64,000 nucleotides of DNA from Nannobrachium achirus (lineage: Eukaryota; Chordata; Actinopteri; Myctophiformes; Myctophidae). Below the pieces are notes generated by a model that saw only the letters and a list, made by a program, of their open reading frames with translations, was not told the origin of the DNA and did not search any database. The stretch spans positions 14,805,781 to 14,869,780 of the forward strand of contig OY997640.1 of NCBI GenBank assembly GCA_963921795.1, given 5' to 3'. This document shows, piece after piece, positions 7,040 through 56,736 of the stretch. Position 1 is the first letter of the stretch; the number at the start of each line of letters is the position of its first letter. The translations under genes and the position numbers were made by a program.

Positions 7040-8701
7040 TCAGCTAAAAGCAAGAGTAAAGAAATAGGTCTTGAGCTGTGCTTTAAAGCTATCCACAGAG
7101 GCTGCCTGTCTTAGGTGTAGTGGGAGTTTATTCCAAACTGTCGGTCCGTAGAAGCAGAAAGCTGCTTCACCATATTTTTTATATTTCATTTTAGGCACAT
7201 CGAGTAGGTCAGCACTAGAAGACCTGAGTGGGCGGTTTGGAACGTATCTATGCAGGCAGTCATAGAGGTACGAAGGTGCCAGACCATTTAGAGCTTTATA
7301 AACAAGTAAAATAATTTTAAAATCAATCCTAAAAACAACCGGGAGCCAGTGTAGCGACGCTAAGACTGGAGTAATATGTTCTCTCATCTTAGCTTTAGTT
7401 AAAACTCTGGCTGCCGCATTTTGAACAAGTTGCAAACTGTCAGTTGTTTTCTTTGGCAGACCAGAGAGAAGTGCGTTGCAGTAATCAAGCCGAGAGAAAA
7501 CAAAAGCGTGGATCAGCGTTTTTGCATCGTCCAATGTTAGATAGGCTCTAATTCGCGCAATATTTCTAAGGTGAAAGAAGGCAATCTTGGTGACATGATT
7601 AATGTGTGTATTAAAATTCAATTCAGCGTCAATGATCACTCCCAGGTTCTTTACAGAAGTGTTACTTTCTTTAGACAGGTTACCAAGTCTACTTATTATT
7701 GATTCTCTCTGCGCAGTAGAACCAATTATGAGAACTTCTGTCTTGTCCTCATTTAGTTTGAGAAAGTTCTCACTCATCCAGCATTTTATGCTAGACACAC
7801 ACGTCAGCAATGGGTCTAGAGCACAGGGGTCGTCCGGAGCTACCGAAAGGTACAGCTGGGTGTCATCAGCATAGAAATGGAAATTCACACCGTGAGCGGA
7901 AATAAGTTCTCCCAGCGGCAGTATATAGAGGGAGAATAATAAAGGACCAAGAATTGAGCCCTGTGGAATACCAGAGCAGATGTTGTGTTTGTTTGACTCA
8001 AAGTCAGCTAGATTAACAAAGTAGCTTCTGCCTGTTAGGTAGGAGTAAAACCAGGACAAAGCTGTGCCTGACAGCCCTACCCAGTGTTCAAGACGTTGTA
8101 TTAGAATTGTATGGTCAATTGTGTCAAAAGCCGCCGTTTGATCCAGCAGTAGGAGAACGGATACATTTTTGTTATCAGCAGACACCCTAAGATCATTAAT
8201 TACTTTTAAAAGTGCAGTTTCTGTGCTGTGTCCTTTCCTGAAGCCGGATTGGAATTTGTTGTGCACCTTATTGTTCTGCAGAAATACATCCAATTGATAA
8301 AAGATAATTTTTTCTAGGACCTTGCCCAGAAAAGGCAAATTGGAAATGGGTCTATAATTACACAGCATGGACGGGTCGAGGTTGTGTTTCTTGAGTAAGG
8401 GCTTAACTACGGCCGTTTTCAGTGTTTCTGGAAAGACACCTGATTGTATAGAGTTATTTACTATTTTTAGGATATCTCCAATCACACAGTCTACAACCTC
8501 TTTGAGAAATGGCGTGGGTATTGCATCCAGCGAGCAAGAAGACGATGTCATTTGCGATATGGTTTTACGAAGTTCCTCTTCATCAATTTCACAAAATGAT
8601 ACTAGGCTGCCCCTAGATTTATCTACACTTTTACACATGGCACCATTAACCGCATTTGCATTTGTGACAGTATTATTCATAATACCAGCTCGAATGTTCA
8701 C
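7040..8701 (-). pseudogene. L2 reverse transcriptase (ORF2, C-terminal 553 residues)
   Basis: The frame is open for 553 residues with the classical RT blocks: PLLKKHNLDPSMLCNYRPIS, LLLLDQTAAFDTIDH (block with a catalytic D), GIPQGSILGPLLFSLYI, and FYADDTQLYLSV (YADD catalytic centre). The C-terminus (YKALNGLAPSYLYDCL and PLHLRQAASVDSFKAQLKTY) is typical of L2/CR1-group elements. The usual LDLSAAFDTIDH reads LDQTAAFDTIDH here. The upstream part is in another frame (8745-9293), split by a shift in or near the G run at about 8777-8785, so ORF2 is broken, though the RT portion is still open. Confidence 0.85.
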
Positions 8702-8744
8702 AATTTTGTTGTCAAAGAAGGATGCAAACTCATTACACTTTGCT

Positions 8745-9293
8745 TTAGAGGCAAGGAGTGACTGCTTGTAGGACTGGGGGGGGGTTTAAGAGGCGTTCAA
8801 TAGTGGAGAATAAGACCCTAGCATTGTTCTTGTTCTCATTAATAATTCCGGAAAAATAGGCCTGCCTAGCCAGACGCATGGTTTTATTGTACGTGGCTGT
8901 TAATGACTTAAAAATCTGTAGATGGATAGTTAGTTTATTTTTTCTCCAAGCTCGCTCTGCTTTGCGGCATTGTTTCTTGAGTGAGCGTATATGATCGTTT
9001 ATCCAGGGTGTTTCTTTTACTTTATGTTTCTTTTTAGTTTTCATAGGAGCCACTATATCCAGAGCTGACTCTAATTTAAGATTAAAATGTTGAACCATAT
9101 AATTTACTGAGGGAATATCAGGAAGGGGGGGTGCACATGCAAGATGGCGAGCAAACTCTTCTGCTGCCGATGCCCTGAAAAATCTCTTTTTTATAGTATA
9201 TTCTCTATTGTATTTTTCTAGATCAGAGACAGTCATATTAAAACACAGTAAATAGTGGTCCGATAAGTCAGGCTTAGCGATGATCCTGTCCAT
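8745..9293 (-). pseudogene. L2 ORF2, end of endonuclease and linker
   Basis: This 182-residue frame starts in the end of the apurinic-type endonuclease (PDLSDHYLLCFNM contains the SDH motif) and runs through the basic linker (ETPWINDHIRSLKKQCRKAE) towards RT. It stops after LNPPPVLQ at a homopolymer G/C run, while the RT continues in another frame. The N-terminal catalytic part of the endonuclease is missing. Confidence 0.8.
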
Positions 9294-14640: not shown

Positions 14641-14663
14641 GTGGGGGGGTGGGGGGGGGGGCG

Positions 14664-15219
14664 GGTATAAATACAGACCGACAAATTAAGTAGTCACTAT
14701 TGGGATATTGTGTGAGGTGTGTAATCGCTGATCATGTGCCTCACTGAGTTCCAGTACTCGTCCAGTGTAAGCACCCCTGCCTGGTACTGGCCTTTGCGTC
14801 TCGTAACTCTGTCCTGCAGATTTCGCCTCTTCACAGCAGGCCTCGGTCCATCTTCACCTCGATGTGCAGCTCTGATGGTGGCCTCAGTCTTTTTCTGCAG
14901 ATCTTTCATCATCAAGATGAAGATCCATAGATTTGGGTGCTTTCCGTTAAGATGACGATTCCAGGTGGCATGGAAGGCTAAAAAAATTAAAAAGAATCTT
15001 GGTGAGACAATGAGGTTGCCATGATGATGAATTCAGAGCACTTTTTCATGGATAGATATATTTTAAATAGGAACTTATCCAAAAACATCTCCTTTTAATA
15101 TATTTCTTACATTCAACATGGTTGTTGGTCCGGTTATCCATGTCTCTGTCATAGACAATCCACAGGGAAGGCGGGAAGACTGCCCCCGCTGGATGTAATT
15201 CCTTTCGACATACCTAATG
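14664..15219 (-). pseudogene. MULE-type transposase 3' part, copy 1
   Basis: Minus-strand pieces separated by an AT-rich gap: SLWIVYDRDMDNRTNNHVEC (about 15120-15200), then after the gap ATWNRHLNGKHPNLWIF and DLQKKTEATIRAAHRGEDGP, down to DEYWNSVRHMI (14697-14990). The order (TNNHVE, then NGKHPNLWIFI, then a basic tail) is the end of the MULE transposase domain found in FLYWCH/MULE proteins. Splice-like borders suggest two exons. The 556 bp recur at 17023-17578, virtually unchanged including the gap. Confidence 0.6.
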
Positions 15220-16870: not shown

Positions 16871-17022
16871 GTGGTGGGGGTGAACAGATGGAGAGGAGTT
16901 GGCACCGTCGTCGCGGACATAGGTCCCGGCATCAATAATGAAAACCTTTTTGGCATCACGGTTCAGGATACTCAGGTCCTTGACATTGCCCTCTCTGGTG
17001 TATGTGCATTTGTCCAAGTGCA

Positions 17023-17578
17023 GGTATAAATACACACCGACAAATTAAGTAGTCACTATTGGGATATTGTGTGAGGTGTGTAATCGCTGATCATGTGCCT
17101 CACTGAGTTCCAGTACTCGTCCAGTGTAAGCACCCCTGCCTGGTACTGGCCTTTGCGTCTCGTAACTCTGTCCTGCAGATTTCGCCTCTTCACAGCAGGC
17201 CTCGGTCCATCTTCACCTCGATGTGCAGCTCTGATGGTGGCCTCAGTCTTTTTCTGCAGATCTTTCATCATCAAGATGAAGATCCATAGATTTGGGTGCT
17301 TTCCGTTAAGATGACGATTCCAGGTGGCATGGAAGGCTAAAAAAATTAAAAAGAATCTTGGTGAGACAATGAGGTTGCCATGATGATGAATTCAGAGCAC
17401 TTTTTCATGGATAGATATATTTTAAATAGGAACTTATCCAAAAACATCTCCTTTTAATATATTTCTTACATTCAACATGGTTGTTGGTCCGGTTATCCAT
17501 GTCTCTGTCATAGACAATCCACAGGGAAGGCGGGAAGACTGCCCCCGCTGGATGTAATTCCTTTCGACATACCTAATG
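17023..17578 (-). pseudogene. MULE-type transposase 3' part, copy 2
   Basis: Virtually the same 556 bp as 14664-15219. I noticed only one difference near the left border (ACAGACC versus ACACACC). Beyond 17578 a different upstream sequence follows, whose frame runs into the exon (ATFIRYVERNYIQRGQ), which matches the Y/F-rich block before TNNHVE in MULE transposases. Confidence 0.65.
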
Positions 17579-18464: not shown

Positions 18465-20909
18465 ATCTATCTATCTATCTATCTATCTAGGTCGTCCTCA
18501 GACGAGCCCTCCATCGTTGTTTCCAGTCATCTCGGTTCTCCATACATCTGGCCAGCTCATTGGTGTTCTGTGTCCCTACGTCTTCCTTGAGTACGTCCAC
18601 GTATGTTTTTGTGGGACGTCCTCGCGGCCGGTGCCCGTGTGTTGGCTCCCACAGTACCAATTTGCTGGCTGGAAGCTCCTGGTGTCTTTGGCAGTGTCCT
18701 GCTAGTCTCATTCTTCTGGTGGCAATTTTCTCGCTTACCTTTGGTATTCCCTCATACAGGCTCTCGTTTGTAACATGTGCACTCCTGTTGATGTTGAGTA
18801 CTGCACGCAACATTCTAGTGTAGCACCCGTCTAGAGACTTCTGCAGGGTTGGCTTCAGGGTCCAGCATTCACTGCCATAGAGGAGAACAGACTCCACCGT
18901 TGCAAAGAAGAAGCTAAGTTTGATTTGGCGGGGGAGGTTAGAGTTCCATACACTGTTCATGCCGTTCAGGGCCCTCCAAGCGAGTGCCTTCCTTACTTTA
19001 AGGTCTTTCTCAGTTGAGTCGACCCATGCGCCCAGGTACTTGAAGTCCTTGACTTCCTTCAACACAGCTCCTTCTGTTGTTGTCAGAGGTGAGTGATCAG
19101 GTAGGTTATAGGTGATAACCTCAGTTTTCTTAGCGTTTAGCCTGAGACCAACTTTGGCACACTCTATCTCCACCCTGTTCAGGAGTTCTTGTGCTTGTTC
19201 CATGCTGTCGGAGAGCAGGCTGATGTCGTCCGCATAGTCCAGGTCTGTCAGAACTACTGCGGGATGCCGTCTTGACCTCCTTGGTGTTAGCGTGAAGCCA
19301 AGCTCTTGTTCCCGTCCCCCTATGGCTTTCCTGAGCGCATAATCTAGAACTATGATGAAGAGGTAGGGGGCTAGGGTGTCTCCTTGCATTACCCCAGCTC
19401 GGATGTCAAACACCTCACTGCTGCCATCTGGGGTCACCACTTTGGCCCTTGTTTTTGCGTACATGGTCTCGATAGCCCGGAGAATGTTGGGAGGGACATT
19501 GTAGGCCTCAAGGATCTTCACCATCTTGCTTCTGTGGATAGAATCAAAAGCCTTTTTGAAGTCAATGAAGCACAGTACAGCTGCTAGGTTGTTCTTTTTC
19601 ACCTCCTCTATTAATCTCCTTAATGCCAGGATCTGTGCTACGGTTGTTCTCTCCTCTCGAAAACCATTTTGGTTCTCTCTCAGGTGAGGGTCGATGGCAT
19701 GCCGTATCCTGTTCAGTATCATTCGGTTGAAGACCTTAGCAGTGATACATGTCAGGCTGATGCCTCTGTAGTTGTCTGGCTTTGAGAGGTCTCCAGCTTT
19801 AGGCACCGGGATGATATTAGACAGAGACCATATTTCAGGTTGCTTGTTGTGCTGTAGAGCATTGTTGCAAAAGTCTAGGATGAGGTTGTCTAGGTCGCAG
19901 TTCTTCAAGACCTCTGGGGGTATGCCATCCGGCCCAGCACTCTTTCCCTCTCTTAGGGTGGATTTTGCCCTGGCGAGCTCGCTGATTGTGAAGGGTCCAT
20001 CGTCGATGTTCAGGCCCTGGAGGACTGTCGGTATATTTTCCTCCTCTCCCTCTTCCACTGATGTTCCCAGGAGCCTCTGGAAGTGGTCGAACCATGTTGC
20101 CACCCTCTCCTCTGGGCTGTGTCCCTCCACCTGGCCCTCCTTGGCCCTCTTCCGCCCTGTCATCTCATTTATTACCTTCCAGGCCTCCCCGTATTGCCTT
20201 TCACCTTGCGCTGCCTGCACTCTTCGCACACTTTCCATCACTTCTTCCCCTTTGATGGTGTCGTAGGTGCTGAAGAGAGACTGTTTGGCTTCGTTCAGTG
20301 TCTCGCGACCCTCCTCTGTTGGCTCACGCTCAAAGTTGAGTCGTGCTTCCTCCATCCTGCCTCGTGCTGCTACAACCTTCGGGTGTCTGGACCGTGGTGG
20401 TGCCCTTACTCTGTTCAGCACTGGCACGCACAGTCTGGTCGCCTCCTCATTCGCTGTGATGAATCTCCCATATTCACGGCTGGGCTCCTCTCCCCTATCC
20501 AGCTGCCGAAAGCGCTTCCTGACTTCCTCCGTGTACCTGGTTTGGAGGCCCGGATTGGTCGTGAATGCCTTCCAGTCATGCCGAATCTTGGGGCTTGGCT
20601 TTGGGACCCTGAGGCTCAGTCGCACCCTCATGGAGACCACACGGTGATCAGAGCCTACAGAGCTGAACGTGCTGTATGGCTCAGCGTTCAGGATGGAATT
20701 CCTCCACTTTTGCCTCACTAGGATATAGTCCAACTGGCGTTGCATACCCGAGGCTCGGTCCTGGAAGGTCCACCTCTTCCCTGTTTTCTTCCGGAACATG
20801 GTGTTCGCTGCCAGGAGCTGGTGTTCCATGAGAAGGGCTGTGAGGTATGCGCCGTTGCGGTTGGTAGACTCATGGTATGGGAATGGTGCATCCTCCTGTC
20901 CAATCCTGG
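18465..20909 (-). mobile_element. RTE-like LINE inserted in the MITE, 5'-truncated
   Basis: Flanked by the 10-bp duplication CTTAAGTTCT (18455-18464 and 20910-20919). The 3' end on the minus strand is a (GATA)n tail (about 18465-18489), as seen in RTE-group LINEs that end in short tandem repeats. The 5' end falls inside the endonuclease domain, so it is a truncated insertion made by target-primed reverse transcription. Confidence 0.85.
18487..20829 (-). CDS. RTE-like LINE ORF2: endonuclease end, reverse transcriptase, C-terminal domain
   Basis: An uninterrupted 780-residue frame, unusual in this window. It opens in the endonuclease (RQLDYILVRQKWRNS and SVGSDHRVVS with the SDH motif at about residues 30-65); in-frame sequence continues upstream of the M to 20909 (FPYHESTNRNGAYL). 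RT follows: SNIIPVPKAGDLSKPDNYRG, LCFIDFKKAFDSIHR, GVMQGDTLAPYLFII and LDYADDISLLSD (YADD centre). The C-terminal GHRPRGRPTKTYVDVL region resembles RTE/RTEX-group elements. The clade is my judgement by motif style only. The intact frame means a young insertion. It cannot be autonomous because the N-terminus is missing. Confidence 0.85.
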   Translation of the reverse strand: MEHQLLAANTMFRKKTGKRWTFQDRASGMQRQLDYILVRQKWRNSILNAEPYSTFSSVGSDHRVVSMRVRLSLRVPKPSPKIRHDWKAFTTNPGLQTRYTEEVRKRFRQLDRGEEPSREYGRFITANEEATRLCVPVLNRVRAPPRSRHPKVVAARGRMEEARLNFEREPTEEGRETLNEAKQSLFSTYDTIKGEEVMESVRRVQAAQGERQYGEAWKVINEMTGRKRAKEGQVEGHSPEERVATWFDHFQRLLGTSVEEGEEENIPTVLQGLNIDDGPFTISELARAKSTLREGKSAGPDGIPPEVLKNCDLDNLILDFCNNALQHNKQPEIWSLSNIIPVPKAGDLSKPDNYRGISLTCITAKVFNRMILNRIRHAIDPHLRENQNGFREERTTVAQILALRRLIEEVKKNNLAAVLCFIDFKKAFDSIHRSKMVKILEAYNVPPNILRAIETMYAKTRAKVVTPDGSSEVFDIRAGVMQGDTLAPYLFIIVLDYALRKAIGGREQELGFTLTPRRSRRHPAVVLTDLDYADDISLLSDSMEQAQELLNRVEIECAKVGLRLNAKKTEVITYNLPDHSPLTTTEGAVLKEVKDFKYLGAWVDSTEKDLKVRKALAWRALNGMNSVWNSNLPRQIKLSFFFATVESVLLYGSECWTLKPTLQKSLDGCYTRMLRAVLNINRSAHVTNESLYEGIPKVSEKIATRRMRLAGHCQRHQELPASKLVLWEPTHGHRPRGRPTKTYVDVLKEDVGTQNTNELARCMENRDDWKQRWRARLRTT

Positions 20910-21520
20910 CTTAAGTTCTGTTCAGATTCACTACACCTTCGTTCTGTTCGGGTCATTTTGACCCGGTGGATATTTGGTTTAAAAAAAACAACACTAATAA
21001 AAATTTTAACTTAACAAATCATCATGATACATTGACTTTGACTCAATACCAAACAATTCATATGATATATTTGGTAAATGTTTGCATTTCTGCTTTGCTA
21101 TATCACATTAAACACTGAAAGAGCTAGGCGTTTTTACTGATTTAGCTGAAATCCATGTAAAAAAAAATACTTCATTTAATACTGGGCAATATTGCTCATG
21201 CTTATAGGAAGGGTGGGAGGGTTCGGAATGGGGCTTCGGAAGGGGGGTGTTAGAAGTGGGGGTGACTGTGTGTCTGTGTTTTGGCATAATACTGTGTATT
21301 TCTGTGCTTCCGGGTCAAAATGACCCGAACAGCACTTAAGGTTCAAAAAATATGAGGGGGGTGTAGCATGGGTGTAGTGCAAAAATATTTTTTTTACATG
21401 TTCATCTCAGAAGAATCTTTAAGGCCAGTGAGTTTCAGGTTGAAACATTTTTAACTTCTACCTTTTTTTTCCAAATGAAAATGTAAAACGGGTCAAAATG
21501 ACCCGAACAGCACTTAAGGG

Positions 21521-27809: not shown

Positions 27810-28312
27810 GAGGTGGGTGGGGGTGGGTGAAAGTGGGTGGAGGTGGGTGAAGGTGGGTAGAGGTGGGTGAAGGTGGGTATTGGGTGAAAGTGGGTGGAGG
27901 TGGGTGAAAGTGGGTAGAGCTGGGTGAAAGTGGGTGGAGGTGGGTGAAAGTGGGTAGAGGTGGGTGAAAGTGGGTGGAGGTGGGTGAAAGTGGGTAGAGG
28001 TGGGTGAAAGTGGGTAGAGGTGGATGAAAGTGGGTGGAGGTGGGTGAAGGTGGGTAGAGGTGGGTGAAAGTGGGTAGAGGTGGGGCGCCCGCTGGACTAG
28101 TGGTCAAGGTGCATACCACATACTAGGCTATGATGCCTGCTGGCGTCGCAGGTTCGATTCCCGATCCGGACGACCTTTGCCGCATGTCATTCCCCATCTC
28201 TCTCTCCCCATTTCCTGTCAGTCTACTATCCTATCAAATAAAGGCATAAAAAGCTCCCCCAAAAAAACTAATCTTTAAAACAGAAAGTGGGTAGAGGTGG
28301 GTGAAGTGGGTT
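27810..28312 (+). repeat. GTGGGTGGAG minisatellite, block 2, split by a SINE
   Basis: The same 9-10 bp units as block 1, about 27 before the SINE (27810-28081) and three after it (28283-28312). Confidence 0.95.
28082..28268 (+). mobile_element. tRNA-derived SINE
   Basis: GGGCGCCCGCTGGACTAGTG gives an A-box-like TGGACTAGTGG, and GGTTCGATTCC is an exact B box about 50 bp downstream. The tail region GACCTTTGCCGCATGTCATT, CTCTCTCTCCCCATTTCCTG and CAAATAAAGGCA plus poly(A) is common to a family of fish SINEs. AAAGTGGGTAGAGGTGGG occurs on both sides, but this is minisatellite sequence and so is weak as a target duplication. Confidence 0.85.
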
Positions 28313-35199: not shown

Positions 35200-35422
35200 C
35201 TAGATGAAAGACCAAAAAAAAGAGAACGGTTATTTACCATTGTTTTATTTTTCATCATAACAATGAATTGCTTCATCCTGAACTGGACTGAACGCCCTCT
35301 GAGGTCTAACCTTAGTTTTCTGAAAAAGAAAAAAAAATCTAAAATTATAAAAGGAAACTACTGTACTTCCAAAATTATAAAAGACAACTACTGTACATGT
35401 ACTGTATACAGAGCTGTGTCAA

Positions 35423-36054
35423 TATACCATATTCACACCGCGGCCATCTTTGATCACATGACTTCCTGGAGTAGCAGCCTGCAAGGCCCTGCATTACAAA
35501 CCATTGTGAACAATGGAGCGATGGTCCCAAAATACGAGTTCTATTCAACCAATTTCTTTTTACCAAATTGACAACAGATGACAACATCAACATCCCCAAA
35601 AGGATTAAATAGAAGGGTATAGTCACAATATTCATGGTAGTTAGGTTGCAGTGTTACTCTGTACAAAGACTTGCTACAGTATGCAGACTAGTGCTTGCTC
35701 TGCCATCATATAGTTAATAATACTGTATCGTGATTTTTGCATATTAATCAGAAACAATCTAACAACACATAGTTAATATGATAGTGGAGCAAGCACTGCA
35801 CAGATAGCAAGTCTTTGTACACAGTAAGGTTGCAACCTAATTACCATGAATATTGTGGATGTACCCTTCTATTTAATCCTTTTGGGGATGTTGATGTTGT
35901 CATCTGCCCATTTGTCAATTTGGTAAAAAGAAATTGGTTGAATCGAACTCATATTTTGGGACCATCGCTCCATTGTTCACAATGGTTTGTAATGCAGGCT
36001 GCTACTCCAGGAAGTCATGTGATCCAAGATGGCCGCGGTGTGAATATGGTCTAT
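35423..36054. mobile_element. 632-bp foldback element
   Basis: The left arm starts ATACCATATTCACACCGCGG and the right arm is its complement, ending CCGCGGTGTGAATATGGTCT. Arms of about 290 bp pair with few mismatches down to a loop near 35740. It directly abuts the ISXO2 transposase remnant. No coding. Confidence 0.85.
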
Positions 36055-38324: not shown

Positions 38325-39301
38325 TTAACGGATGAGCGCAGCGTGGGCTTGGCGGAGGTCGTGGGCGTTGGAGCGGATGTATGTGTGGTAAGCGGACGAC
38401 GACCAGCGACCGAGAATCTGTATGATGTGCTCGGGGATACCTTGCCGGGATGCTGAGGACGCCGCACCTATACGGAACGAGTGGCCGGAAAAGTGCTCGG
38501 CTGCGTAGCCGGCCTTGGCTAGGATTTGGCGAAGGTGGCGATGGAACCAGGACCGGGTGATCACGGTGCCGGTTTCGGAAATGAATAGTGGGTCGGAAGG
38601 TGAAGCGTTTTGGGACCGGCGGGTGTGAAGGTGGCGCACGAGAGGCTCGTAGGGACTGAGGGGTGAATTTAGCTTGAAAAGGTAAATGGGAGCCGATGCT
38701 CCGAATTGGTCTGTTTTACTGTGCCTGAGCGTGTAGATCAGGGTAGAATGGTCTAGGATTGTGAGGTCGGCGAGGCAAGGGTGGCGAGCCGGATCGAATC
38801 TGGTATTGGGAGCGGTGAACTCAGAGCACCTGAGGAACCCGTAAAAGGCCAGGAGGAAGACCGATTCGAGTGTGGAGTCGGTGAACGGATTGGCATGGCC
38901 GGAACGGAGTACCGTGATACAATCGGCGAGAATTGGTGAGGTGAGGGGTTGGCGGCTAGGAGGATGGCGTGGCTCGTACCGTCTAATGCCTTTAAGAAGC
39001 AGAGAGACGTGGGGATGTGAATGGAAGGGGTGAGGAGCGCCGGTGAGTAGTTTTGTTACGAAGTTAATACCGGCGAGGTAGGCACGGATGGTGGACGAGG
39101 GCATAGACCGGGAAGTGTGGCAGTGGCTGATGTAGGAGGCGAGGGTGGCTAGGTCTAGGGACGGGAAAGGTAGTGCATAGGTGGAGTGGAATAATTGGAA
39201 ATTTTTCCAGGCGGTCCAGTAGGAGGACAGGGTGGACGGGGCGAGTGACAGGAGAATGGTTTGTTGGGCGTGGAGTATGAGGTGGCGGAGAGGGTGGTCT
39301 A
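38325..39301 (-). CDS. tyrosine recombinase (YR) of the Ngaro element
   Basis: The first in-frame M gives 259 residues (to 39104), but the frame is open further upstream (HDLPIDHPLRHLILHAQQTI) and overlaps the end of the RT frame, so expression may use a -1 frameshift or a spliced/initiated start. Catalytic residues of the lambda-integrase/DIRS family are visible: the first R in FYGFLRCSEF, HxxR in GHSFRIGAA, and the W and nucleophile Y in GRWSSSAYHTYIRS. The enzyme would integrate circular double-stranded cDNA by strand exchange. The stop at 38325 is 20 bp before B1. Confidence 0.85.
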
Positions 39302-40915
39302 TGGGAAGGTCATGTGAGAAAACGGAGGTGCCGGAGTGGGGTGGATGTCCGCGTCTGGAGCCAGTAGCCTGAATTTCTGGAAGAGAAAACGAGAAAGTGA
39401 GTCAGCTATGGCATTGAGGTGACCGGGAATATGGGCAGCACGGATAATGAAATTGTGAGTGACTGTGAGCCAGGTGAGCCGTCTGAGGAGGGACATGATG
39501 GGGAGTGAGGAGGAACGGCCTTTGTTAATAATATCTACGGTGGCTTGGCTGTCTGAGTGAATGAGAACGGAGCGGCTGGTCCATTCTGAACCCCAAAGGG
39601 AAGCCGCTACGACGATGGGATAGAGCTCGTACATAGCGGAGGAATGGTGGGGGTCGCGCTGGGAATCTAGCATCTCCTTTGGCCATTCGTCCGCGAACCA
39701 GCGCCCACGGTAATAGCCTCCGTAGCCTACAGAGGGTGCGGCATCAGTGAATAACTGGAGGTCCTCTGGTGAGGAGTGAAAGTTATCGTAGAAAAAACTA
39801 ATGCCGTTCCAGTTTTGGAGGAGGACTCGCCAGAGCCTGAGCTCCATTCTGCACTCTTGTGAGAGTGAGACCTGGTGGTGGAGGGATGGGACGGAGGAGG
39901 CTAGTGAGAGGAGGTGGGAGATGAACGAACGGCCTTGGGGGATAATGCGGGTTGCGAAATTGAGGTGGCCTAGGAGTTGGAGTAGTTGCTGTTTTGTGCA
40001 GGAGGTGGTGTCTGAGAAGTTTGCCACGATTAGGGTGATTCTGTCCAATTTTTCCTGGGGAAGGGAGGCCTGGAAGGCGAGAGTGTCTAGTTTAATTCCT
40101 AGGAATTCAACGCTAGTGGCAGGGCCTTCTGTCTTGTCTTCGGCGAGGGGAACACCGAGAGCTGTGAAGGCTGCTTTCAGACAAGACAGACTGTGTGCGG
40201 GGGGGGATGATGGGGGGTCAATAGTGAGGAAGTCGTCTAGCAGGTGGACGAGGGAGGGGATGCGGTAGATGTTTAACAAAATCCAGCATAACAGTTCTGA
40301 CAGGTTATCGAACAGCTTGGGGCTGCTTTTGCATCCGAAAGTTAGGCGGACTGCAAAATAGTATTGGCCTTTCCAGCAGACTCCGAACCAGCGCCAGGAG
40401 TCTGGGTGGAGGGGGAGGACCTTGAAGGCCGAGGTGATGTCGGCTTTGGCCAGCCAGGCACCGCGGCCGGCTAGGCGAATGAGGGATATGGCGTGGGCCA
40501 CTGTAGAATAATGGAGGGAATAGTCGGAGCTGGGGATGAGACTGTTAATGCTAGGATTTGCGGAACCGTGGGGGGAAGACAGGTCTATGATGAGGCGTTT
40601 TTTGCCGGAGTATTTGCGGGTGGCTATTCCGACGGGGCTGATGCGGAATTTGGTGAAGGGGGGAGAGGGAAATGGGCCTATCATGAAACCTTGCTGGACT
40701 TCCTTGGTGATTAGGGTATCGACGGTGTCTGGGTCTGTCAGGGCGGATTGGAGGTTATTGCAGGTGAGATTTGTGTCTGGGGGTGTGACGAGGCCCGGGG
40801 AGAAGCCGTGGTTGAGGCCGTCTAGGAAAAATCGGACAAAATCGGGGTCTGGGTGTGAAGTTAGCTCTGAAGCTAGGGCTGGGATGTTGATAGGGGTGGC
40901 TAGGTGCTTTGCTAG
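39299..40915 (-). CDS. reverse transcriptase and RNase H of the Ngaro element
   Basis: The first M (40684) gives 461 residues, but the frame is open from the codon directly after the Gag stop (NIPALASELTSHPDPDFVRF), so the full product has about 538 residues if made by readthrough. RT blocks: GKKRLIIDLSSPHGSANPSI, GAWLAKADITSAFKVLPL, LTFGCKSSPKLFDNLSE and LVHLLDDFLTID (the LDD centre in place of YxDD, usual in this group). RNase H: LFTDAAPSVGYGGYYRG, ELYPIVVAA, LIHSDSQATVDIINKG, NAIADSLSR. No methylase follows. Confidence 0.88.
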   Translation of the reverse strand, partial: LAKHLATPINIPALASELTSHPDPDFVRFFLDGLNHGFSPGLVTPPDTNLTCNNLQSALTDPDTVDTLITKEVQQGFMIGPFPSPPFTKFRISPVGIATRKYSGKKRLIIDLSSPHGSANPSINSLIPSSDYSLHYSTVAHAISLIRLAGRGAWLAKADITSAFKVLPLHPDSWRWFGVCWKGQYYFAVRLTFGCKSSPKLFDNLSELLCWILLNIYRIPSLVHLLDDFLTIDPPSSPPAHSLSCLKAAFTALGVPLAEDKTEGPATSVEFLGIKLDTLAFQASLPQEKLDRITLIVANFSDTTSCTKQQLLQLLGHLNFATRIIPQGRSFISHLLSLASSVPSLHHQVSLSQECRMELRLWRVLLQNWNGISFFYDNFHSSPEDLQLFTDAAPSVGYGGYYRGRWFADEWPKEMLDSQRDPHHSSAMYELYPIVVAASLWGSEWTSRSVLIHSDSQATVDIINKGRSSSLPIMSLLRRLTWLTVTHNFIIRAAHIPGHLNAIADSLSRFLFQKFRLLAPDADIHPTPAPPFSHMTFP

Positions 40916-40918
40916 TCA
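40912..40918 (-). promoter_or_regulatory. candidate stop-codon readthrough site UGA CUAG
   Basis: The Gag frame ends AGC AGT TGA and the next bases are CTAG, then the RT frame continues in phase (231 bases, 77 codons, to its first Met). UGA followed by CUAG is the best-known readthrough context in animal genes and in several RNA viruses. Confidence 0.65.
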
Positions 40919-42958
40919 ACTGCTTGAGGGTTTGGTGGGGTTGTGGGGGCATGCGACACGGGAGTGGGCTCCGGAGCAAAAAGAGCATACATGCAACAAT
41001 TTACAAGCGGACGAGTTACAGCCCTTGTCATTGAAATTATTGCACAGCATTTTTTGCCCGACAAATAGGATGGGGCGGCCTCGACGATCCCTATCCTGGG
41101 AGGAGGCTGGGAGTGCGGTGGGGCGTTGGGTTACGGGCTTAGCTGGGCGGGCCGTGAGCTGTGGGAGTTGTGTATGGGTTTGGGGTACCTGATAGGAAGA
41201 TGGCCGGGTGAAAGAGGTGGAGGTTGAGGGGCGGGAGGTGGCGAGGACGCAGGCTGAGGTGGGGTGGGCCGGGCAACTGCACAGGTCGCAAGCGACGGCG
41301 GTTCTGCCGGCAAAGAGCCGGCAGTACAGCTCGGAGTCCAGTGCCCCCCAGTAGGTCAGCTGGTTCGACTGCTGGAGTCGGGCTGCCGCCGTCGCTGCGA
41401 ACTGCCTGTGATAGTGGTAGAAAAGGGGCCCGGAGAAACGGATAGCTAGGTCCATGATTATTTGCAAATAATCATCCAGCTCCTGCCTGCGGTAGGGGAA
41501 AACGGAACAAATGACATTCCGGTAGAGGGAAAAAGCCAGGACGAATTCTGTGGGGGAGAGAATAGTGGGGTTAGTGGCTGAGTTGAGATCGCGGAGGGTG
41601 ATGGACACCCCTCCGCAATCTACGGTCCTGGCCTGGTGGGAGAAAGCAGAGGGTTTGATTAAAGCAGCTAGGTCCACGTCCGTACCCTGGAGAATCTGGA
41701 TGCGGAGTGCGTTTGACACCGGCATCGGGTTGGCGGAGATGGCCGACGGAGGTACGGGAGCGGGCAGGGCTGTGGAGAGGGAAAAAGCAAATTGAGGTAT
41801 GGGTGTGTGGACGTGGGCCTGGGCTACTGGTAGGTAGTTCAGGGGGACAGTTTGTAGCTGTGGGTTGAAGTAAGCGGCCTGGTTGGCCGTGGCGAGGGAG
41901 TGAAGAATGGGTGGTAGGGCCTGGGTTTGGGGAAAAGTGAGCTGATTAGCTGTGGGGGGGAGGGGGGCAGTTAAAGCCTGTTGAAAGAGAGTAGGCTGAT
42001 TAAGCATGGTGGGGGGAGGGGGAACAGTTTGGGCCTGGGTTTGGGAAAAAGTGAGCTGATTAGCTGTGGGGGGGAGGGGGGCAGTTAAAGCCTGTTGGAA
42101 GAGAGTAGGCTGATTAAGCATGGTGGAGGGAGGGAGGACAGATTGGCTCTGGGTCGTTAGACCCGTGGCCTGATTGCGGGGGGGAGGGGGGGGTGTTTGT
42201 GTGTGGCCGAGAATAATGGAAGATTGGACGGGGGTTTGGGTTTGTGCAGTCCCCTGTGCATACATGTTAAGTAAGTGCAGCAGTGGGTTGGAATACGTGG
42301 ATGGGGAAGAGTGAACAGTGGTTGCAGAGACGTTAGTAGTGACAGCGGGGGAAATGGCGGGGGAAGCGACGTGGCGAGTTTTACGAGGAGCTTTCCTAGG
42401 GGGTGGGCGGGACGGGGATTCCCCGGGGTTTCCCTCTGACACGCCTGTCGGTCCCGCGTCATCAACGTGCGACGGACCGGGCATGGAGGGATCTCGCATA
42501 GCATTACAGTATAGATCAAACAAAGTGGCTTTAACTGCAGCTCGGGGAAATGTTACGTTTAAACTAGTCAGGGCGTTCTGTAAGCCACGTATGGTCCAAT
42601 CATTAATGGCAATGGAGGGAGTGACTGACCTGGCAGATGGCACGGAGGTGGCAGAACGGCTCCTGGTGTACGGGCGAAGAGCGGAGGCGGCAGTGGAACG
42701 GTGAGTGGAGCGTGCTGGGGATGAATGGTGGCTCCGTGTAGGAGTGCTCCTCGGCCCGTGGTGAAGTTCCGCGGGGGTGGGGGTGAGGGCGGGTGGCGGC
42801 GCGGTGGTGGTGGAAGTTGCCGAAGTGGTGGTGGCGGTGGTGGTGATGGCGGTGGCAGCGACGGTGGCTCGCTGTCTGTCCAAAATGACTCGGAGGTCGA
42901 TGGTTGGAGGGATCTCGTCCTCCGAGGCATTGAGTTCCATTGGCTCATCTGGGTCCAT
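40916..42958 (-). CDS. Gag-like ORF1 of the Ngaro element
   Basis: 680 residues. N-terminus acidic then Thr/Ala/Pro-rich. A SAP-like block near residues 125-165 (INDWTIRGLQNALTSLNV, then VKATLFDLYCNAM) recurs in the relative at 48182-48503. The middle is Gln/Pro/Thr-rich with an internal repeat (TMLNQPTLFQQALTAPLPP, present twice). The C-terminus has a Cys/His cluster (CNNFNDKGCNSSACKLLHVC, then CSGAHSRVACPHNP), the zinc-binding end typical of DIRS-group Gag. It should coat element RNA. The M at 42958 lies about 120 bp inside the A1 border, a sensible start. Confidence 0.85.
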   Translation of the reverse strand: MDPDEPMELNASEDEIPPTIDLRVILDRQRATVAATAITTTATTTSATSTTTAPPPALTPTPAELHHGPRSTPTRSHHSSPARSTHRSTAASALRPYTRSRSATSVPSARSVTPSIAINDWTIRGLQNALTSLNVTFPRAAVKATLFDLYCNAMRDPSMPGPSHVDDAGPTGVSEGNPGESPSRPPPRKAPRKTRHVASPAISPAVTTNVSATTVHSSPSTYSNPLLHLLNMYAQGTAQTQTPVQSSIILGHTQTPPPPPRNQATGLTTQSQSVLPPSTMLNQPTLFQQALTAPLPPTANQLTFSQTQAQTVPPPPTMLNQPTLFQQALTAPLPPTANQLTFPQTQALPPILHSLATANQAAYFNPQLQTVPLNYLPVAQAHVHTPIPQFAFSLSTALPAPVPPSAISANPMPVSNALRIQILQGTDVDLAALIKPSAFSHQARTVDCGGVSITLRDLNSATNPTILSPTEFVLAFSLYRNVICSVFPYRRQELDDYLQIIMDLAIRFSGPLFYHYHRQFAATAAARLQQSNQLTYWGALDSELYCRLFAGRTAVACDLCSCPAHPTSACVLATSRPSTSTSFTRPSSYQVPQTHTQLPQLTARPAKPVTQRPTALPASSQDRDRRGRPILFVGQKMLCNNFNDKGCNSSACKLLHVCSFCSGAHSRVACPHNPTKPSSS

Positions 42959-43075
42959 CGTGGCGGATGGGTGATGAGAATGGTAGTAGTAGTAGTAGTA
43001 GTTTAATGTCGTTTAGGACAGGTTTTTGCGAAAACAAAGTTTCTCTTAGTACGAAGTACTGTTGCGTGGGTTCCC

Positions 43076-47033: not shown

Positions 47034-47543
47034 ACATGTTTCTGTATGAGCTTGTATGACCATATGTATTTGTATTGTGTCATAGTGCACCGGGTTCGAG
47101 GGGCAGAGCGGAGCGGGCACCTGGGACACAGACACAGGCTGTTTCACTAGTAAGAGACCACACCTCCGCTTAAGTTGAACACGTTTATTAAACAAAGTGA
47201 ACATGGATGTTGAGGTGTATGAGGTGTGATGATGATGATGGAGCCCGGGATAGGGTGAGACTCAGTATGGGGGTAGTCTCTGGAGTGACGGCACGGATGC
47301 TCTGCTCGGGAGCTGTCTGAGGCCTCTGCTCCAATACTCCCCGGTTTATATTTACCTGTCGTCGAGGAGGGTGTGGAGCTGCTGGAGTCTGAGCGGAGGA
47401 AGAAAGGCGAGCTGTAGAGCTGGAGCGTAGGGCTCGGGGGGGCTGAGCTGGACGAGCAGTGGCGGGAGCTGAGCTGGTGCAGTGGTGGTTGGCGGTGCGG
47501 TGGATGGCCATAACCGCTCTATAGTCAAGTAAAAATGAAGCTG

Positions 47544-48167
47544 AGGTTGGAAAAAATTGTGTTATTTAGTTTTTCAACTGATTCTGACAGGAAATTAGGT
47601 CTACTAGCCAGGATAAAAAATCTACCATAATCTGCTCACTGCAAATACCCACAGTGGCCAAATCAAGTTGGGCTCCCATCGACTTTCTATACAGGAGGAA
47701 AATACCCAGAAAAAAAATCCGCTTTAAGTAGGATGTGAGGGGTCTAACTAGGGGTTTGTCATGATGCTGAATCCATTGCAAGCATTTGTTTTGCACAAAA
47801 AACATTCATTGGCCCCAGAAAACGCCCACAAAACTGATGAAAAGTGATGACTCGTCACTTTTCATCACTAAACCATCATTTTCTGGGGCCATTTTTAGCC
47901 CAAGGAATGTGTTTTGTGCAAAACAAATGCTTGCAATGGATTCAGCATCATGACAAACCCCTAGTTAGACCCCTCACATCCTACTTAAAGCAGATTTTTT
48001 TCTGGCTGTTTTCCTCCTGTATAGAAAGTCGATGGGAGCCCAACTTGATTTGGCCACTGTGGGTATTTGCAGTGAGCAGATTATGGTAGATTTTTTATCC
48101 TGGCTAGTAGACCTAATTTCCTGTCAGAATCAGTTGAGAAACTAAATAACACAATTTTTTCCAACCT
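47544..48167. mobile_element. 624-bp foldback element inside the Ngaro relative
   Basis: Left arm AGGTTGGAAAAAATTGTGTT, right arm its complement ending AATTTTTTCCAACCT. The arms pair over about 300 bp to a centre at AAAAGTGATGACTCGTCACT (about 47845). A few indels separate the arms, including an ACATTC/ACACATTC region near the centre. No target duplication recognised. Confidence 0.85.
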
Positions 48168-48181
48168 GAGTGGATTTTTTT

Positions 48182-50639: not shown

Positions 50640-51475
50640 TAGCAGTTCAACCAGTCGTAGTCTGCAACTTCCCTTCCAAATGAGCTCTTATTGATGCCAT
50701 AGTCAAAGAGAATTTCTTCGTATGCATTGATGTCTTTTATGACATGTTCTTTCTCAGTCTGATCGTCTTTCAGCAGCATCTTGTAGGCAAATGGTTTTAC
50801 ATTTGGTATTTTTTATGAATGGTTGATCTTCCTCCCAAATGTCCTCATGCCGGGATGACAATTGCAGCTGTCTGCTTGAGCGTCAAACCACCCGTACTTG
50901 AACTGGAAGAAGTAGTAATCCGGTGCCTCTTGCTGTTCGAACCTCGTTTTCCCATCTTGAAGGGAAAGATATTCCCCATGATAATCACAGACAAACTCCC
51001 CCTTCTTTATGTCTGTCGCGGCAAAAAGGCCTGTGGAAACAAATAATGTGAACGTTAGGTCTAGTTACTCTGCTACAGTCCTACCCTCCAAACCTCCTAC
51101 TTTTCTTCCATATTGATACCTCATTCCAATGTCCTTTTGTCTTTAAGGGTTTCTTTTTGTTTCATTTTGTTAGTCTACATGTTGTAGTCTACAGCTCTAA
51201 AAGAGCTGTTTAATCTTAGTATTCTCGTTTAAAGCATCTTTGGGTAGATACCTTCCCCTTTTACGCCCACATCTTTGATGATCACAGCTGGCCAAGCTTG
51301 TGTCTTCACAAAACAGAGTATTTCTGGATCTTGTTCGGGGTCTAGCGGTGCAGTTTCAGTTTTCAGGTCTTTCATTACAGTATCAGGATCTGGCTTGATC
51401 TTCTTCCACTTCTGTTCAATGGAAAGTGTAGTCCTGCGTTTAGAAGGTTTGCGTCTGGAACCTTCACCTGTAAAA
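50640..51475 (-). pseudogene. SET-domain gene (KMT5A/SET8-like), two exons, one in-frame stop
   Basis: Exon 1 (51252-51472, minus) follows a TTTTTACAG acceptor and reads RRKPSKRRTTLSIEQKWKKI ... KTQAWPAVIIKDVGVKGE. It is spliced (GAAG/GTATCT donor; TTTCCACAG acceptor at about 51031) to exon 2: GLFAATDIKKGEFVCDYHGE, then FGRKINHS, a TAA, then KIPNVKPFAYKMLLKDD, EEILFDYGINKSSF and the final stop near 50640. GxGLFA, Y.GE, INHS and ELLFDYG are the SET methyltransferase core; INHS and the final Tyr bind S-adenosylmethionine. The order fits the KMT5A group that methylates lysines such as H4K20. The TAA directly after INHS replaces what is normally a Lys/Arg, so this copy is disabled unless read through. 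Upstream exons are not seen; TA repeats and the TRIM-like element lie there. Confidence 0.7.
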
Positions 51476-51518
51476 AGAATATATATATATATATATACAG
51501 TATATATATATATATATG

Positions 51519-51654
51519 TGTAACGGAGGTGATCCGAACCTCCCCACCCGGCTTCGAACCCGGGTCTCCCACGTGAAAGTCCAATATCTTAACCACGAGA
51601 GCAGATACTAGACTTTTGAGGCTTCAGGCTGGGGCTGCGACTCTCTCTGCCACA
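51519..51654 (-). repeat. TRIM 3' LTR (shorter copy)
   Basis: Keeps the B box (GGGTTCGAAGCC on minus, about 51549-51560) but lacks the 27 bp with the A box. Confidence 0.7.
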
Positions 51655-51711
51655 CTCACCCCCCTTTGACCTCCTCCTACGGGGAAGCCCGAATCCGGGT
51701 CACGGCACCAA

Positions 51712-51874
51712 TGTAACGGAGGTGATCCGAACCTCCCCACCCAGCTTCGAACCCGGGTCTCCCACGTGAAAGTCCAATATCTTAACCATTACTCCAAAGG
51801 AATTTCTTTTTGGAACGAGAGCAGATACTAGACTTTTGAGGCTTCAGGCTGGGGCTGCGACTCTCTCCGCCACA
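51712..51874 (-). repeat. TRIM 5' LTR (longer copy)
   Basis: Begins TGTGGCGGAGAGAGTCGC and ends CACCTCCGTTACA on minus. Contains the full tRNA-like segment. Confidence 0.7.
51733..51804 (-). ncRNA. tRNA-Glu-like sequence within the LTR (not a functional tRNA gene)
   Basis: Minus strand: A-box-like TGGAGTAATGG (51796-51786), an anticodon-loop-like GGACTTTCACGT (TTC, Glu), and B box GGTTCGAAGCT (51753-51743); A-to-B spacing 33 bp, as in tRNA genes. The acceptor stem does not pair cleanly. It may serve as a Pol III promoter inside the LTR. Confidence 0.5.
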
Positions 51875-51879
51875 CATAC

Positions 51880-51883
<4 letters not shown>

Positions 51884-51946
<63 letters not shown>
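51884..51946 (+). repeat. (TA)n microsatellite
   Basis: Pure TA up to the terminus of the next element. Another TA tract lies at 51479-51517. Confidence 0.9.
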
Positions 51947-56303: not shown

Positions 56304-56736
56304 TCAACCTCGTGTTGAGCAGTTAATCCTATTTGCTACGTACGTCTACAAAAACCTTCATATTTCAAAGATAACGTGCTTACTGAAGTCTCACAGATGT
56401 CACAGTATGGTACGCTCAAGCAGAATTACCCGTATCTTTCGTATTGTTTAATAAACTGCATTTTAATCCGATCAGATGCCATTTTCTGTTGTTTTTCAGC
56501 CATGCGACCCCATCGGTTGCGAGGTGTACTGCACTTAGATACATTAATACCTTTTTAAGGAAACGACGACCGATCGGATTAAAATGCTCCTCATTAAATA
56601 ATACGATCATTACGGGACATTCTGCTGGAGCGTACCCTATGGTGACATCTGTGAGCCTTCACTAAGCAATTTATCTTTGTAATCTGACCGTTTGTGTAGA
56701 CGTATGTAGCAAATTGGTTAAACTGCTTCACGGTTG
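56304..56736. mobile_element. 433-bp foldback element
   Basis: Left arm CAACCTCGTGTTGAGCAGTT..., right arm its complement ending AACTGCTTCACGGTTG. Inner parts such as TTTTAATCCGATC and GATCGGATTAAAA pair around a loop near 56500-56550. No coding. Confidence 0.8.

What the first reader, a model, noticed from the sequence alone, without database searches (positions are those of the whole stretch)
51519..51874. A 356-bp TRIM-like LTR element with a tRNA-Glu-like Pol III promoter in its LTRs
Seen: two TG...CA LTRs (163 and 136 bp), a primer site TGGTGCCGTGACCCGGAT one base after the first LTR, and AAAGGGGGG before the second. The LTR carries A-box-like TGGAGTAATGG and B-box GGTTCGAAGC at tRNA spacing with a TTC loop. 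Known: the primer site fits the 3' end of vertebrate tRNA-His with one mismatch, from memory. Plant Cassandra TRIMs carry 5S RNA promoters in their LTRs. Inference: a vertebrate analogue carrying a tRNA instead of 5S RNA.
Basis: partly seen in the sequence, partly recalled or inferred. Interest (0 to 1): 0.85.

Follow-up and report, generated by a model that had tools for sequence, protein, structure and literature searches.

The report
Helenus-type mini retrotransposon with tRNA-like LTR
This is one small, damaged copy of a retrotransposon whose repeated ends carry a tRNA-like promoter; this kind of element, in fishes as well, was already described in 2024 under the name Helenus, so it is ordinary.

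Summary
The structure is real, on the minus strand. Two direct repeats (51712-51874 and 51519-51654) differ by two substitutions and one 27-nt gap. A primer site one base after the first repeat matches the recalled tRNA-His 3' end at 20 of 21 bases. AAAGGGGGG directly abuts a TGAG that is the likelier start of the second repeat. The longer repeat holds a 66-nt ungapped tRNA-like stretch with A- and B-box-like motifs; 0 of 300 shuffles scored as high.

Corrections: the A box lies only in the 5' LTR; "tRNA-Glu" is not specific (Gln scores best for the 5' LTR, Glu for the 3' LTR); no cloverleaf is supported.

The idea of a vertebrate, tRNA-bearing counterpart of Cassandra is right in kind but already published: Kojima 2024 (PMC10886601) named tRNA-bearing TRIMs "Helenus", found in zebrafish, carp, goldfish, sturgeon, paddlefish and coelacanth among others. 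Vertebrate members use tRNA-His, -Leu or -Lys primers.

No exact target duplication was found; AT microsatellites flank the copy. Copy number, host species and exact Helenus family stay untested: the whole-genome search did not complete (9 tries) and no reference sequence was held. Pol III transcription and Gypsy mobilisation are inferred. Low interest.

The parts
51712..51874 (-). 5' LTR, 163 bp; outer end possibly eroded (the 3' LTR suggests a TGAG start)
   Evidence: self-alignment
51519..51658 (-).
   Evidence: the TGAG start is inferred from its adjacency to the purine tract
51659..51711 (-). internal region, 53 bp, no room for a protein
   Evidence: sequence
51690..51710 (-). primer-binding site; 20 of 21 bases complementary to the recalled vertebrate tRNA-His 3' end with CCA; next best of 25 recalled tRNAs 17 of 21
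51659..51667 (-). polypurine tract AAAGGGGGG
   Evidence: sequence
51736..51801 (-). tRNA-like stretch, ungapped 46 of 66 identical to recalled tRNA-Gln-TTG
   Evidence: 0 of 300 shuffles score as high
51786..51796 (-). A-box-like motif, 5' LTR only
51743..51753 (-). B-box-like motif, 5' LTR (1 mismatch)
51550..51560 (-). B-box-like motif, 3' LTR (0 mismatches)
51789..51815 (-). 27 nt of the 5' LTR that are absent from the 3' LTR; taken as a deletion in the 3' LTR because tRNA similarity runs through it
   Evidence: alignment; polarity inferred
51883..51946 (.). flanking AT microsatellite on the upstream (sense) side
51479..51517 (.). flanking AT microsatellite on the downstream (sense) side

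Best explanation
One copy of a Helenus-type TRIM, a non-coding miniature LTR retrotransposon. Shown from sequence: two LTRs, a tRNA-His-type primer site, a purine tract, a tRNA-derived stretch in the LTR with A/B-box-like motifs, and a 27-nt gap in the 3' LTR that takes out the A box there. Inferred: RNA polymerase III starts near the tRNA-like part of the 5' LTR and reads through into the 3' LTR; a helper Gypsy element's reverse transcriptase and integrase copy the RNA from a tRNA-His primer and insert it. The tRNA-like part acts as promoter only, not as a tRNA. This copy is now a mildly decayed insertion, on the same strand as an adjoining SET-domain gene remnant.
For: LTRs, primer site and purine tract in the right order and spacing; primer site 20 of 21 to recalled tRNA-His, next best of 25 tRNAs 17 of 21; tRNA-like stretch 46 of 66 without gaps, 0 of 300 shuffles as good; three best tRNA-like tiles of 2,130 in the window are here; no cloverleaf, as the paper says of most Helenus; length 356-360 bp lies inside the published 311-1263 bp; Kojima 2024 reports fish Helenus and vertebrate tRNA-His primers.
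Against: No exact target duplication. The A box lacks the TRGCY that the paper finds in most Helenus. The 3' LTR has no good A box. No TTTT in the sense strand of the element; the first T5 lies 42 bp downstream, so a Pol III end inside the 3' LTR, as in Cassandra, is not evident. The fold of the tRNA-like stretch is no better than shuffles (z +0.80, 167 of 200 fold at least as well). Only one copy in 64 kb; no relatives found by pattern in viral or prokaryote contigs, where none would be expected. No reference Helenus sequence was available for a direct comparison.
Confidence: 0.88

Rival explanations
1. An LTR-type TRIM that is transcribed by Pol II, with the tRNA-like stretch a passive relic of a SINE that landed in an ancestral LTR.
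For: A box imperfect and lost from one LTR; no internal T4 terminator in the sense strand; Pol III function of Helenus is not experimentally shown, as the paper itself says.
Against: A and B boxes at tRNA spacing are rare by chance (5 of 3,000 shuffles); no Pol II promoter or polyadenylation signal was looked for here, so nothing positive favours it.
Confidence: 0.25
2. A dimer of a tRNA-derived SINE mobilised by a LINE.
For: tRNA-like head in each repeat; the paper reports tandem arrays of zebrafish LTR-11_DR.
Against: Primer site and purine tract exactly at the inner LTR edges, TG...CA ends, no poly(A) or simple tail at the sense 3' end.
Confidence: 0.04
3. Chance repeat or a local tandem duplication inside a microsatellite region.
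For: AT microsatellites on both sides; no exact target duplication.
Against: The spacer between the repeats holds a primer site and a purine tract, and the repeats begin TG and end CA.
Confidence: 0.02

Closest known systems
Helenus (TRIMp3), fish families related to zebrafish LTR-11_DR; Kojima 2024, PMC10886601
   Same: TRIM size, two LTRs with a tRNA-derived Pol III-type promoter region, GGTTC in box B, tRNA-His among vertebrate primers, purine tract, no coding capacity, tRNA unlikely to be functional
   Different: Here one LTR lacks the A box, box A does not read TRGCY, no exact 4-bp target duplication is seen; sequence identity to a named family untested (supplement not open to me, Repbase not held)
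Helenus of coelacanth (LTR1_LCh, LTR2_LCh) and of sturgeon and paddlefish, same paper
   Same: same architecture in other vertebrates, as the paper describes
Cassandra (plants), seen through the introduction of PMC10886601 and search listings
   Same: TRIM with a Pol III small-RNA promoter in its LTRs
   Different: Cassandra carries 5S rRNA; no 5S match was listed here
Ajax (nemerteans), same paper
   Same: TRIM with a small-RNA promoter
   Different: 5S-derived, tRNA-Leu primer

Membership tests
Helenus (TRIMp3) | two LTRs, total length 311-1263 bp, no proteins | tested here: met
   356-360 bp, internal region 53 bp
Helenus (TRIMp3) | tRNA-derived sequence inside the LTRs | tested here: met
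   46 of 66 ungapped to recalled tRNA-Gln-TTG, 0 of 300 shuffles as good; the 3' LTR tile also scores high, 49, but lacks the A box
Helenus (TRIMp3) | box A TRGCY and YGG (most members), box B GGTTC | tested here: inconclusive
   YGG and GGTTC present; TRGCY not met (TGGAG); the paper says most, not all
Helenus (TRIMp3) | primer site for the 3' end of a tRNA (vertebrates: His, Leu, Lys) just after the 5' LTR | tested here: met
   20 of 21 to recalled tRNA-His, one base after the LTR
Helenus (TRIMp3) | polypurine tract at the 3' end of the internal part | tested here: met
   AAAGGGGGG flush with TGAG
Helenus (TRIMp3) | 4-bp target site duplication (animals) | tested here: inconclusive
   no exact 4-6 bp pair in 189 boundary registers; flanks are AT microsatellites that could have blurred it
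Helenus (TRIMp3) | dispersed copies and solo LTRs in the genome | not testable with these tools
   The genome search unanswered 9 times; one copy in the window
Helenus (TRIMp3) | Pol III transcription | not testable with these tools
   no RNA data; not shown for Helenus in the paper either
Helenus family LTR-11_DR in particular | sequence identity to the consensus | not testable with these tools
   no sequence in the main text; supplement look-ups capped at 0
Cassandra | 5S rRNA sequence in the LTRs | tested here: not met
   no 5S match listed
tRNA-derived SINE dimer | poly(A), simple-repeat or LINE-derived tail | tested here: inconclusive
   no poly(A); the sense 3' end is followed by an AT microsatellite, and LINE tails were not compared; primer site and purine tract argue against

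The most novel reading that the evidence does not exclude
A Helenus lineage outside the hosts listed in 2024 (chordates there: coelacanth, sturgeon, paddlefish, Cypriniformes, one catfish, milkfish), or one whose tRNA head is of separate, tRNA-Gln-like origin (the paper aligns fish Helenus with tRNA-Val), with read-through rather than in-LTR termination of its Pol III transcript. Host and family are unidentified, so this is not excluded.
Probability: 0.2. Interest if true: 0.35.

Novelty: already known. Interest (0 to 1): 0.15.

Why it matters
Little beyond confirmation: a reader without tools found, from one copy, a kind of element described only in 2024. If such copies are Pol III-transcribed they can mislead tRNA annotation and may affect nearby genes; here the copy lies about 50 bp before a probable splice acceptor of a SET-domain gene remnant.

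Tried and rejected
Whole-genome copy search: not completed. Pattern scans for relatives: TTGGTGCCGTGACCCGGATTCGGGC, 0 in viral contigs and 0 in genome contigs; an LTR-start pattern, 0; an anticodon-region pattern, 0; a B-box-side 20-mer, 1 stretch (L001), which I did not examine. These collections are not fish genomes, so the misses say little.

Host: the best named relatives of a window LINE (7043-8785, minus) are fishes, first Astyanax mexicanus at 59% (120 of 7,828 hits listed, the 14 best unnamed). Another LINE (18490-20910, minus) has Synaphobranchus kaupii as best named relative, but also amphioxus, sea urchin and oyster names further down (120 of 754 listed). A joined SET-domain query found nothing. 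So: probably a fish, species open.

tRNA reading rejected: ARAGORN found none in the window; Rfam listed no tRNA (the hits listed are mostly AT-repeat matches to microRNA and other models); no cloverleaf fold. A very permissive ARAGORN run on the LTR alone gave three calls of mutually inconsistent type (Leu, Ser, Gly on the other strand), taken as noise.

Dating from LTR divergence (2 of 136) left out: too few changes.

Full report
Observation. The element is on the minus strand. Read 5'->3' there, a 163-bp LTR (51874-51712) is followed by one base, a primer-site-like stretch (51710-51690), a short spacer, AAAGGGGGG (51667-51659) and a second LTR ending at 51519. Repeat finding and self-alignment show the two LTRs. 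In the global alignment they differ by two substitutions and a 27-nt gap over 136 shared bases. AT repeats flank both sides (51479-51517 and 51883-51946). No exact 4-6 bp target duplication was found in 189 combinations of start, end and length; the best of ten inexact comparisons have 2 mismatches.

Primer site.

tRNA-like part. The 5' LTR aligns without gaps to recalled tRNA-Gln-TTG, 46 of 66 identical (score 52); the maximum over the same 25 tRNAs in 300 dinucleotide shuffles was 39. Asp-GTC (44), Glu-TTC (41) and Val-CAC (40) follow. Tiling the whole window, 2,130 tiles, the three best are on this element: Gln-TTG for the 5' LTR, Glu-TTC (49) and Asp-GTC (43) towards the 3' LTR. So a tRNA origin is well supported and the isotype is not. 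A box (one mismatch) and B box (one mismatch in the 5' LTR, none in the 3' LTR) have starts 43 nt apart in the 5' LTR; 5 of 3,000 shuffles do as well at spacing 40-48. With wider spacing allowed, such pairs occur at 11 places in the window, four of them on this element counting both strands, so loose motif matching alone would not convince. The 5' LTR has two other A-like matches with one mismatch, at LTR offsets 2 and 86.

Not a tRNA. ARAGORN: none in 64 kb. Rfam: no family at gathering score in the window, and no tRNA or 5S match listed for the element with relaxed thresholds. Folding the tRNA-like stretch gives one T-arm-like hairpin of 6 bp with an 8-nt loop and no cloverleaf; 167 of 200 shuffles fold at least as well. 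The 3' LTR piece folds differently (z -1.12).

How it most likely works. Shown: the anatomy. Inferred from established LTR-retrotransposon biology and from the Helenus paper: Pol III starts near the tRNA-like part of the 5' LTR; the RNA spans primer site, purine tract and 3' LTR; tRNA-His primes first-strand synthesis; proteins come from an autonomous Gypsy element. One feature does not fit a simple copy of the Cassandra scheme: there is no TTTT in the sense strand of the element, and the first T5 is 42 bp downstream. Read-through of the whole 3' LTR would still leave enough repeat for strand transfer (inference). The 27-nt gap removes the A box from the 3' LTR, so this copy has one good promoter at most.

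What is known. A literature search (35 papers, 20 listed) brought up Kojima 2024, PMC10886601. I read parts 1-4 of 6 of the text, the figure legends and tables, and passages; the supplement was not open to me. It defines Helenus as TRIMs with tRNA-derived sequence in the LTRs, in fungi, animals and a plant; lists 13 chordate species, all fishes including coelacanth; states that vertebrate families use tRNA-His, -Leu or -Lys; that animal families make 4-bp duplications and share primer sites with Gypsy; that zebrafish LTR-11_DR has 5,575 LTRs and 2,618 internal parts; and that most cannot encode a tRNA. Further searches for LTR-11_DR and TRIMp3/Helenus returned only this paper; searches added Cassandra and SINE papers, seen as listings only. 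The finding is therefore an instance of a published kind. Whether it is LTR-11_DR or a relative is untested.

Surroundings. The element lies about 50 bp upstream, in the same orientation, of a probable splice acceptor (AG at 51468-51469) of a gene remnant with a SET domain (PF00856, 32.9 bits against a cut-off of 22.4), with an in-frame TAA at 50813-50815. The exon reading is mine; no transcript supports it, and a protein search with the joined pieces found nothing.

Verdict. Real, ordinary, already known in kind; host and family open.

Noticed in passing
38328-43012, minus strand: Reverse-transcriptase-like ORF (RVT_1, E 2.3e-06 but 27.9 bits, under the 29.6 cut-off) next to a tyrosine-recombinase ORF (Phage_integrase, 35.4 bits), preceded by a long gag-like ORF: looks like a DIRS/Ngaro-type retrotransposon (name recalled).
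   Followed up: partly
50642-51467, minus strand: SET-domain gene pieces with an in-frame TAA at 50813-50815; probable pseudogene or decayed copy.
   Followed up: partly
28081-28200, plus strand: Another tRNA-like tile, best with Ser-GCT, score 40, with good A and B boxes; probably an ordinary tRNA-derived SINE (recalled resemblance to fish SINEs).
   Followed up: no
35422-36054, 47531-48179, 56318-56727: Long near-palindromic inverted repeats (83%, 90% and 72% self-complementary), possibly foldback or palindromic DNA transposons.
   Followed up: no
14661-15219 and 17020-17578: Direct repeat of 559 bp at 99.6% identity 2.4 kb apart, not identified.
   Followed up: no
7043-8785 and 18490-20910, minus strand: Two LINE reverse transcriptases; best listed relatives are unnamed database proteins at 94% and 86%.
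   Followed up: partly
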